This document shows positions 41,401 through 44,400 of a stretch of 64,000 nucleotides of DNA, piece after piece. The stretch spans positions 69,848,724 through 69,912,723 of the forward strand of contig NC_134846.1 in assembly GCF_965363235.1 (NCBI RefSeq). Reading direction: 5' to 3'. The DNA is from Mytilus galloprovincialis (Eukaryota > Mollusca > Bivalvia > Mytilida > Mytilidae). The notes under the pieces were generated by a model that ran no database searches, was not told where the DNA came from, and worked only from the letters and a program-made list of their open reading frames with translations. The stretch's first letter is position 1, and each line of letters begins with the position of its first letter. The position numbers and the translations under genes are program-made.

Positions 41401-44400
41401 CCTTTTATTCAAGTGAAATAAAATACAGTATAAAGTCATGAAATAAGAACAATTGACAGACGACAAGCACACTTCTGTCTTGTTACTACAGGTTGATTGG
41501 TAGAGTAAAAGGGAAAGGCCAAACAAAAAGTATATGTGTTTACTGTCACATGCTGAAAAAAAATTGGGATTTTTTTTTATTAATTTTAAAAATATTTTTT
41601 TTAGATTGATTATATGGGAGTACCATTGTGACTTTCACAGTGCTTAATGAAAAATGGTCAAAAAAACTTTAGGGTAGGGGATAACAAATTAGGGTAGGTA
41701 TGGGTATAGTAAACACATACATGTTTGTTTGGATTAAGGGTGACAAGCTGTCAATATTACACATTATCACAGCCTTTACAATACATACCTAGTAAATGCA
41801 ATAGAAAATTTATTTATTAGTTTAAAAATAGTAAGAAGATTGCCAATGTGACAAAAGACCATAGGATAAGAATGTATAAAACAAGTACAGGTCATTGTAC
41901 AACCTCTAACAATATGGTGAAATAAGATTAGAGAGTTTTTACAAGAAATCATGTAATGACCTTATTACGAACTGATGCTCTTCGAAACACAGTTTCTGTT
42001 ACCTTTCTGTACCAAAAAAAAAATATGTCAGGATGCAAATTTGACAGTAAAAGCCCTGCAGGCCTAACATTTATCTTAGCTACCTATATATATATATATA
42101 CATTATATATATTATATATAGGTTAATATAATTATGGTATGTACACTTTTTATAAATAGTCAAGCTTGTTAAAACAAATATAAATTTGTAGTACTTACAC
42201 TAAGTAGATGTAAATGGTATTGACCTTTAAGTACTGTGCTCTTTGCGAGACATGTAAACATTCATGGTTTATCTACATTTGGAAACCTGACTGAATTATT
42301 TTCAAATATGTATAAATCATGACAACATATTTGAAAAAAGGAGGGTCTTAGAATTGTCAGTCAAAAAAATTGACATTAAGCTTAAGCACTATTCTATCTG
42401 TAAATCAATATGTCCATATTTTAGCTCCTCCAATATAATTTTCTGCTGAGTAACTTATGATCACCAATGCTGTTTGTTTGTTACACAGAATAATGTAAAG
42501 AAATATCACTTCTGAAAATTTAAAAATTGCATGCAATTATTATTGCAACTTTGGAAGAATGGACAAAAATTGTGAGATAAATTATTGCCATTTGATATAG
42601 GAAAATCTGCATACACATATATGTACCAGTTATCAGAATGCAAGTTTTAGTTAATTTGACCTTAAGTAGACTTTACTCCATATTGCATTAATCGCATTGA
42701 TAAAAACTTTGCCTTAATTTCTGACTTAACAGCTTGTAGTCTTCAATTCAGAAATCATACGTGTCAATTTTAGTGACATAGGCATTTCAGTCACCAATAT
42801 ACATTGACATATGAATACCGGTATGTGTCCTGGTAGAACTACCGGTACCAGAAAAGCCTTCCACAACAAAAATGGACTCACAGAATTTTTAGTTGAATTA
42901 TTATTTAATTTTTTCTATGAATTAGGCTGATGGAAATGATTCATAATTTCTATAATTACCATATTTTCTATCCCCAAATAATTATTTTTTTCAGAGATGC
43001 ATGTACACTGTTTTTCAAACATGATCCCTTGAAGATCACAAAAGCTTCCAAACAGTATATGTATGATGAGAAAGACAATGCGTATCTTGACTGTATAAAT
43101 AATGTTTGTCATGGTATGTATCTTAGAAAGACTGCGTATCTGGACTGTATAAATAATGTCTGTCATGGTATGTATCTTAGAAAGACAATGCGTATATGGA
43201 CTGTATAAATAATGTCTGTCATGGTATGTATCGTAGAAAGACAATGCGTATCTGGACTGTATAAATAATGTCTGTCATGGTATGTATCTTAGAAAGACAA
43301 TGCGTATCTGGACTGTATAAATAATGTCTGTCATGGTATGTATCTTAGAAAGACAATGCGTATCTTGACTGTGTAAATAATGTCTGTCATGGTATGTATC
43401 TTAGAAAGACAATGCGTATCTGGACTGTATAAATAATGTCTGTCATGGTATGTATCTTAGAAAGACAATGCGTATCTGGACTGTATAAATAATGTCTGTC
43501 ATGGTATGTATCTTAGAAAGACAATGCGTATCTGGACTGTATAAATAATGTCTGTCATGGTATGTATCTTAGAAAGACAATGCGTATCTGGACTGTATAA
43601 ATAATGTCTGTCATGGTATGTATCTTAGAAAGACAATGCATATCTGGACTGTATAAATAATGTCTGTCATGGTATGTATCTTAGAAAGACAATGCGTATC
43701 TGGACTGTATAAATAATGTCTGTCATGGTATGTATCTTAGAAAGACAATGCGTATCTGGACTGTATAAATAATGTCTGTCATGGTATGTATCTTAGAAAG
43801 ACAATGCGTATCTGGACTGTATAAATAATGTCTGTCATGGTATGTATCTTAGAAAGACAATGCGTATCTGGACTGTATAAATAATGTCTGTCATGGTATG
43901 TATCTTAGAAAGACAATGCGTATCTGGACTGTATAAATAATGTCTGTCATGGTATGTATCTTAGAAAGTTCATGGTGTATGTACAGGGTATCATAGGAAG
44001 GGTGGTCATGGACCCTTAGAAAGTTGATGATAGTGTTTGGGCTGTTCAAAAGTTATATATATATTATATATATATATTGTTTCCAGCTCTTATTCCTAAT
44101 TTGTCCCCCTGTTGATTTTGTGCATTAATATATATTTAATACAACTTGTATAGAGAAAAGTGGGACACAAAACACTGCAAAATGTGATCAATTTAAGCAA
44201 TTTAAAGTTTTAAGTGGTGACATTCAGTGTGTAATTTATATATACCAGTGGCTGATTCAGGATTTTCAATAAAACAATTTGATTTAGAAAAAGAAAAAAA
44301 AGATAAAGAAAAATGTAATTAAGTCTACAAATCTTTTGCATTAAAAAGGGGGAGGGTTGCAGACCAGGACCTGTGTTGTTCTGTACTTCAAGTAAAAAAA

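What the first reader, a model, noticed from the sequence alone, without database searches (positions are those of the whole stretch)
43069..43970. An exon-intron border amplified into a 16-donor array
Directly after exon 2 of the ETNPPL-like gene the last part of the exon and its GTATGT donor are repeated 15 more times at a 56-bp period, with little divergence. The pre-mRNA therefore offers 16 nearly equal 5' splice sites, and only the first keeps the reading frame. Each added 56 bases would shift the frame, so either the first donor is strongly preferred or many transcripts are non-productive. Such a decoy array could be neutral or could tune output.
Basis: partly seen in the sequence, partly recalled or inferred. 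Interest (0 to 1): 0.8.

Follow-up and report, generated by a model that had tools for sequence, protein, structure and literature searches.

The report
Repeat array spanning an exon's end
In what looks like a mussel genome, the end of one exon of an intact enzyme gene, with its splice signal, has been copied into a row of sixteen; it resembles a known human repeat across an exon border (in CBS), and how it affects splicing is untested.

Summary
The array is real: 16 units of 56 bp (98% matches) at 43069-43968, each holding the last 45 nt of exon 2 and the first 11 nt of intron 2 of an intact 11-exon gene of ETNPPL type (ethanolamine-phosphate phospho-lyase). All 16 donors are the same 9-mer, ATG|GTATGT, and no other GT from exon 2 to exon 3 scores as well.

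Copy 2 is 54 bp, so donor 2 also keeps the frame (+18 aa, no stop). Donors 3-16 all meet one TAA at codon 89 and predict NMD targets.

The array is bounded by AGAAAG words that would stand 56 bp apart in a one-copy ancestor: most likely a minisatellite born by tandem duplication across the border.

It is not alone: exon 3's donor and exon 6's acceptor are also tandemly copied, as are three borders of a paralog. In all 6 of 63 borders examined, against 6-14% of random points: background, not enrichment.

Human CBS has a close precedent, a 31-bp VNTR of 16-21 copies across the exon 13/intron 13 donor. I file this as a new member of a known kind. Donor use and copy-number variation could not be tested.

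The parts
38421..38473 (+). Coding exon 1 (ATG at 38421)
   Evidence: Spliced frame of 500 codons with one terminal stop; donor TGG|GTAAGT
42995..43113 (+). Exon 2, with donor 1 after 43113 (phase 1)
   Evidence: TTTTTTTCAG|AGATG ... CATG|GTATGT; protein aligned without gap to PDB 6tor across the exon 2/3 junction
43069..43968 (+). 56-bp tandem array, 16.1 copies: 45 nt of exon end + 11 nt of intron start; begins and ends with AGAAAG
   Evidence: TRF; unit listing
43114..43167 (+). From donor 1 to donor 2, 54 bp (two A lost): donor 2 is in frame and adds 18 codons ([18 protein letters not shown])
43206..43208 (+). TAA in copy 3, met by any transcript that uses donors 3-16 (codon 89)
   Evidence: Codon number; position worked out from the sequence
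43168..43951 (+). Copies 3-16 with donors after 43223, 43279, ... 43951; five substitutions in all, none in a donor 9-mer
44684..44843 (+). Exon 3
44800..44996 (+). Diverged tandem duplication over the exon 3 donor; a second donor, after 44945, leads to a stop at codon 112; in a third copy the donor is dead (GG|ATAAAG, after 45004)
   Evidence: TRF
46742..47112 (+). 126-bp x 2.9 array over the exon 6 acceptor: exon starts 46779, 46905 and 47031; the two upstream ones lead to a stop at codon 183
   Evidence: TRF
47031..47239 (+). Exon 6 as read in the intact frame
55889..56207 (+). Last coding exon (11), ending in TAA

Best explanation
The array is a minisatellite that arose by tandem duplication across the exon 2/intron 2 border of a working gene of ETNPPL type. 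Two AGAAAG words, one in the exon and one in the intron, would lie 56 bp apart in the one-copy state; slippage or unequal exchange between them made the first copy, and more of the same grew it to 16. Shown: unit, bounding words, open gene, identical donors, stop in copy 3. Inferred: U1 can bind several of the 16 sites on one transcript and one is finally used; transcripts joined from donor 1 make the enzyme, those from donor 2 may make a form with 18 extra residues, those from donors 3-16 carry an early stop far upstream of later junctions and should be removed by NMD. The gene stays usable because enough transcripts use donor 1 (shortest exon, first transcribed), so the array is tolerated, perhaps at a cost in output that grows with copy number. 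I do not think it was selected as a device.
For: Array and register. AGAAAG at both ends and the 45+11 nt make-up. All 16 donors the same 9-mer; it scores 9.02 bits on a local weight matrix, above 19 of 28 other donors, and no other GT from exon 2 to exon 3 reaches it. Intact 499-aa frame, all 20 borders GT/AG, PF00202 E=1.1e-80, best solved relative 6tor, named ethanolamine-phosphate phospho-lyase, E=1.3e-169. No second copy at high identity among the 17 matches reported in the assembly; the nearest paralog is 38-61% identical per aligned piece of 16 residues or more. The two differences between exon 2 and the array consensus over 45 nt (CTT/CTG, GTT/GTC) are synonymous (codons read by me). 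Other borders duplicated too: 3 of 20 in this gene, 3 of 19 in the paralog, 0 of 24 in chaperonin-family exons; random points 140 of 1020, or 55 of 900 without two satellite-rich stretches; borders versus random not different, P 0.45 and 0.28. Precedent: human CBS VNTR.
Against: No transcript data: donor use is inferred. The array is nearly uniform and may be so young that an intact gene says little about its effect. In two-donor constructs, as I recall, the donor nearest the 3' splice site is often preferred, which would favour copy 16, not copy 1. A folding model makes donor 1 the least accessible of the gene's 10 donors (0.0002; the other nine 0.006-0.17; random 9-mers median 0.03, 21% of them under 0.005), and the array lowers it further at 37 C (0.0011 to 0.00017; at 15 C 1.8e-5 to 2.4e-6 but not steadily, with 3.4e-5 at three copies). 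That speaks against an easy win for donor 1, though such models are rough. The border survey is small and includes the gene that was picked for its array.
Confidence: 0.68

Rival explanations
1. Decoy rheostat: the 14 non-productive donors are kept by selection, compete for U1 and divert transcripts to NMD, so that copy number or splicing-factor level sets the gene's output.
For: 14 of 16 donors lead to one early stop; equal donor strength; in human CBS a review reports that more 31-bp repeats go with lower enzyme activity.
Against: No donor conservation beyond chance: 0 of 6 changes in donor 9-mers, P about 0.35. Border duplications are no more frequent than duplications at random points. No regulatory partner was sought or seen.
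Confidence: 0.12
2. Donor 2 is the point: copy 2 lost two bases and became an in-frame, stop-free 18-codon alternative exon end, giving a second protein form.
For: Copy 2 is the only one of 15 added units with an indel, and the indel keeps the frame; the product repeats [11 protein letters not shown] before VGHCHP.
Against: One event; by chance a single indel falls in copy 2 once in 15. The insert sits in a stretch that aligns without gaps to 6tor and 5g4i, next to the conserved HVGH segment, so harm is likelier than a new function.
Confidence: 0.06
3. The gene is being lost: the array and the other border duplications cripple splicing, and another enzyme or none does the work.
For: Three of 20 borders duplicated; donors 3-16 non-productive.
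Against: All 11 coding exons open, all 20 borders GT/AG, 499-aa frame without an internal stop; the paralog is diverged and has duplicated borders too.
Confidence: 0.07
4. Assembly artefact: the array is absent or of another length in the animal.
For: I could not see reads, and I do not know how the assembly was made; copy number of uniform arrays is often misassembled (recalled).
Against: Copies 2, 3, 4, 6 and 11 carry their own variants; 0.9 kb is short for long reads; a single place in the assembly; tandem repeats are common in the sampled genome.
Confidence: 0.05

Closest known systems
Human CBS 31-bp VNTR, c.1444_1467+7(16_21), exon 13/intron 13 (Lievers et al. 2001; seen only through citing papers)
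   Same: Tandem unit made of an exon's end plus the first bases of the intron (24+7 nt there by my reading of the notation, 45+11 here), so every unit carries a donor; 16-21 copies there, 16 here; unit length not a multiple of 3. Both enzymes use PLP (recalled; a coincidence).
   Different: In CBS the copy number is known to vary among people and a review links it to enzyme activity. Here there are no population or RNA data. The unit is 56 bp.
[quoted passage not shown]
   Same: Splice-border duplication in a working gene, tolerated because the splicing machinery strongly favours one of the two sites. Compares best with the exon 6 acceptor array of this window.
   Different: Two copies; here the main array is 16 copies of a donor. 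The passage seen calls the doubled sites 'splice donor sites', although an intron 7/exon 8 junction is an acceptor; I take acceptor to be meant.
Internal tandem repeats at exon-intron boundaries in human segmental duplications (PMC2812944)
   Same: Minisatellites at borders that can give alternative splicing through novel introns (abstract and passages).
   Different: Recently duplicated genes, units of about 30 bp repeated about 4 times on average; here a gene without a close duplicate and 16 units.
[quoted passage not shown]
   Same: Duplication crosses an exon-intron boundary and copies splice signals (abstract).
   Different: There a new intron formed; here the unit has no AGGT and only a poor acceptor-like TTAG (above 1 of 32 true acceptors), so a new intron is unlikely.

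Membership tests
VNTR spanning an exon-intron donor border (CBS 31-bp type) | Unit contains the exon end and the donor | tested here: met
   45 nt of exon + GTATGTATCTT
VNTR spanning an exon-intron donor border (CBS 31-bp type) | Several tandem copies in a gene that is otherwise intact | tested here: met
   16.1 copies; open 499-aa frame
VNTR spanning an exon-intron donor border (CBS 31-bp type) | Copy number varies among individuals | not testable with these tools
   One assembly only
VNTR spanning an exon-intron donor border (CBS 31-bp type) | Alternative transcripts from repeat donors | not testable with these tools
   No RNA data
Intron gain by tandem duplication (AGGT model) | AGGT in the duplicated segment | tested here: not met
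   No AGGT in the unit or at the unit junction (read by eye from the units)
Intron gain by tandem duplication (AGGT model) | Usable acceptor inside the copies | tested here: inconclusive
   TATGTATCTTAG scores 5.39 bits, above 1 of 32 true acceptors
Tandem (mutually exclusive) exon duplication | Unit holds a whole exon with acceptor and donor | tested here: not met
   Unit starts inside exon 2; the exon 2 acceptor has no second copy within 400 bp
ETNPPL-type class-III aminotransferase | Aminotran_3 domain over its length | tested here: met
   PF00202 1.1e-80, residues 29-435
ETNPPL-type class-III aminotransferase | Closest to ETNPPL rather than to other class-III enzymes, its sister PHYKPL included | tested here: inconclusive
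   Among solved structures 6tor (ethanolamine-phosphate phospho-lyase) has 568 bits against 291 for the next; PHYKPL (recalled sister enzyme) was not compared
ETNPPL-type class-III aminotransferase | Phospho-lyase activity | not testable with these tools
   Needs an enzyme assay

The most novel reading that the evidence does not exclude
In this bivalve-like genome tandem duplication across exon borders is so frequent that splice sites exist as copy-number-variable arrays in many working genes, kept cheap by NMD; this array is an extreme case in which the share of productive mRNA, and so enzyme output, falls with donor copy number, roughly as 1/n if all donors compete equally (1 or 2 of 16 productive).
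Probability: 0.15. Interest if true: 0.7.

Novelty: new member of a known kind. Interest (0 to 1): 0.42.

Why it matters
Sixteen 5' splice sites with the same 9-mer in near-identical surroundings, differing mainly in position, are a natural test of how the spliceosome chooses among equal donors. If copy number varies among animals it would be a graded, ready-made experiment on splicing and NMD, and a further case beside human CBS of a splice-border VNTR that may set enzyme level. More widely it suggests that genomes rich in minisatellites can carry repeats across splice sites without losing the gene.

Tried and rejected
Donor conservation as a sign of selection: 0 of 6 changes in donor 9-mers, chance about 0.35, rejected as evidence. 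Enrichment of duplications at exon borders: 6 of 63 borders against 140 of 1020 or 55 of 900 random points, not different, rejected; the higher rate in the two ETNPPL-type genes (6 of 39) than in chaperonin exons (0 of 24) is suggestive only, P 0.07. At the cut of 1e-8 I count 4 of 63 borders from the list, against 120 of 1020 random points, or 36 of 900 without the two satellite-rich stretches. Donor masking by hairpins: the exon-end hairpin has z -2.1 (9 of 200 shuffles as good), two array stretches -2.1 and -1.7, but the longer stretch 43058-43150 only -0.5; too weak to build on. New intron inside the array: no AGGT, poor acceptor. A second copy of the gene that would free this one: none at high identity among the matches reported. 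Chance origin of the array is not credible at a TRF score of 1737; I ran no shuffle for it.

Papers. The primary CBS VNTR paper (Lievers 2001), the paper on surplus U1 (Hodson 2012) and a paper on introns from tandem arrays (PMC1783408) are not held, so I rely on passages of citing papers for the first two and did not use the third. Searches: on VNTRs and CBS, 20 on repeats at exon-intron boundaries, 23 on duplication and intron gain, 22 and 49 on U1 and competing donors, 41 on Mytilus and minisatellites. No listing showed a paper on this array, but no search named ETNPPL. For PMC2630376, PMC1395315, PMC5188458, PMC2812944, PMC5389562 and PMC2809761 I saw found passages, for PMC4974935 the abstract and outline; everything else was a search listing.

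Limits of the survey: the 17 background stretches lie at round coordinates that I chose on contigs 1-14; points within them were random. Paralog borders were set by eye from tblastn matches; one (exon 10 donor) was set one base off, which hardly matters at +-25 nt. The two weaker paralog cases (exon 2 donor 7.7e-6, exon 6 donor 5.2e-8) are counted. The donor matrix leaves out the array donor itself, the ambiguous chaperonin donor of L052 and the paralog's exon 10 donor. L043 (region of a more distant relative on contig 6) was fetched and scanned but is in no count.

Full report
What is there. The window is G000:C9:69848724-69912723 of a 1.385-Gb assembly in 331 contigs. Contigs 1-14 are all 73-133 Mb long. 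That a mytilid mussel fits this size and chromosome number is recall; no call names the species. From 38421 to 56207 run the 11 coding exons of a gene on the + strand. Its spliced frame is 499 codons plus stop with no internal stop, and all 20 borders are GT/AG. It has the class-III aminotransferase domain (PF00202, 1.1e-80), and its best solved relative is 6tor, named ethanolamine-phosphate phospho-lyase (1.3e-169), far ahead of the next (1.6e-85).

The array. TRF finds 43069-43968, period 56, 16.1 copies, 98% matches. Each unit is the last 45 nt of exon 2 plus the first 11 nt of intron 2. The array begins with AGAAAG in the exon and ends with AGAAAG in the intron (43963-43968), so that in a one-copy ancestor the two words would stand 56 bp apart. 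The simplest origin is tandem duplication between them (inference). Units 2-16 differ from their consensus by one 2-nt deletion (unit 2) and five substitutions (units 3, 4, 6 twice, 11). The exon differs from the consensus by two synonymous changes. The search of the assembly reported this place only (7 of 7 matches; such counts are lower bounds).

The donors. Sixteen GGTATGT sites end exon-like sequence at 43113, 43167, 43223 and so on to 43951. All share ATG|GTATGT. On a weight matrix from 28 other donors of this genome the site scores 9.02 bits, above 19 of the 28, and between the start of exon 2 and the start of exon 3 exactly these 16 GTs reach that score. Sequence at the site itself cannot tell the donors apart; position and order of transcription differ.

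Consequences in frame. Copy 2 is 54 bp, so donor 2 gives an open product 18 residues longer ([18 protein letters not shown] between H57 and V58). Donors 3-16 all read into TAA 43206-43208, codon 89, more than 1000 nt upstream of the last exon junction, which by the usual metazoan rule (recalled) makes them NMD targets. The 18-residue insert would fall in a segment that aligns without gaps to 6tor and 5g4i, so I expect it to harm the enzyme (inference).

Surroundings. The same gene carries two more border duplications: a diverged one over the exon 3 donor (44800-44996; the second donor leads to a stop at codon 112, a third is dead) and a 126-bp x 2.9 array over the exon 6 acceptor (46742-47112; both upstream acceptors lead to a stop at codon 183). 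A paralog on the same chromosome at about 70.667-70.683 Mb, 38-61% identical per aligned piece of 16 residues or more, has a 62-bp x 3 array over its exon 9 acceptor, with the two upstream copies running into stops, and two weaker duplications at its exon 2 and exon 6 donors.

Is that special? With one test (50 nt centred on the border, similar copy within 400 bp, E at most 1e-3) 3 of 20 borders of this gene, 3 of 19 of the paralog and 0 of 24 in 12 chaperonin-family exons are duplicated. Of 1020 random points in 17 stretches of 10 kb, 140 are, or 55 of 900 without two satellite-rich stretches, L027 and L037. Borders do not differ from random points (P 0.45 and 0.28); the two genes against the chaperonins give P 0.07. 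At the cut of 1e-8, 120 of 1020 random points pass, or 36 of 900 without the two satellite-rich stretches, against 4 of 63 borders by my count from the list. Tandem repeats with a period of at least 20 cover 19,406 of 170,000 sampled bases (11.4%) and 11.9% of the window; but most of the sampled total lies in L027 and L037, and without them 5,719 of 150,000 bases (3.8%, my subtraction) are covered, so this window is richer in repeats than the rest of the sample. With that reserve, border duplications here look like the genome's ordinary rate of local tandem duplication. What is unusual is the size: a point with 6 or more near-identical copies within 400 bp was seen at 29 of 1020 random points, all 29 in the two satellite-rich stretches and 0 of 900 elsewhere. 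The sample is small and this gene was chosen for its array.

How it most likely works. [quoted passage not shown] At 56-nt spacing several of the 16 could be bound (inference). Donor 1 defines the shortest exon (119 nt; the others 173 to 957) and is made first; both should help it (recalled principles). The donor nearest the 3' splice site is often favoured in two-site constructs (recalled), which works against it. Because the gene is intact, I infer that donor 1, perhaps with donor 2, is used often enough; but a young array would leave the gene intact whatever its effect. How much is lost to donors 3-16 cannot be read from sequence. A folding model places donor 1 in a stem with the exon (lowest accessibility of the gene's 10 donors) and at 37 C the array deepens this, but the hairpin is barely beyond shuffles.

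Selection? None shown. No change hits a donor 9-mer, but with six changes that has a chance of 0.35. The only indel falls in copy 2, where it keeps the frame. That is one event, with a one-in-15 chance of landing there.

What is known. The human CBS gene has a 31-bp VNTR, written c.1444_1467+7(16_21), that is, by my reading, 24 nt of exon plus 7 nt of intron, with 16 to 21 copies in people (PMC2630376, passages); two other papers place it at the exon 13/intron 13 boundary (passages). A review says that more repeats go with lower enzyme activity (PMC5188458, passage). [quoted passage not shown] The primary VNTR paper is not held; I recall that it reported alternative splicing there. Repeats at exon-intron boundaries are also described for human duplicated genes (PMC2812944), and NMD has been proposed to shelter imperfectly spliced new introns from selection (PMC2809761). 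The array is therefore a new member of a known kind. It is not an intron gain by the AGGT model and not a tandem exon duplication, by the tests in the membership table.

Noticed in passing
46742-47112: Acceptor array in the same gene: 126-bp unit x 2.9 with the exon 6 acceptor; the two upstream copies carry a stop.
   Followed up: yes
44800-45010: Diverged duplication of the exon 3 end; one further good donor (after 44945), one dead (GG|ATAAAG).
   Followed up: yes
L026:6768-6952: Paralog 0.76 Mb downstream: 62-bp x 3 array over the exon 9 acceptor.
   Followed up: yes
L026:1960-2160: Paralog exon 6 donor (AAAAGAGAAAAGTAAGC) has a second copy nearby downstream.
   Followed up: partly
36381-37345: 78-bp x 12.4 array about 1.1 kb upstream of the gene's ATG; because 78 is a multiple of 3 it holds long open frames (279 and 155 aa).
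   Followed up: no
58996-61172: Layered array: 53-bp units grouped into 106-, 126- and 179-bp higher-order repeats downstream of the gene.
   Followed up: no
2310-2514: 51-bp x 4 array; its minus strand holds GGAAAG|GTAAGC, a good donor match, near a minus-strand ORF (2832-3260) that looks like a short-chain dehydrogenase (recall, not searched).
   Followed up: no
43069-43126 and each unit: Exon-end AUGCGUAU can pair with the donor GUAUGUAU; donor 1 is the least accessible of the gene's donors in a folding model.
   Followed up: partly
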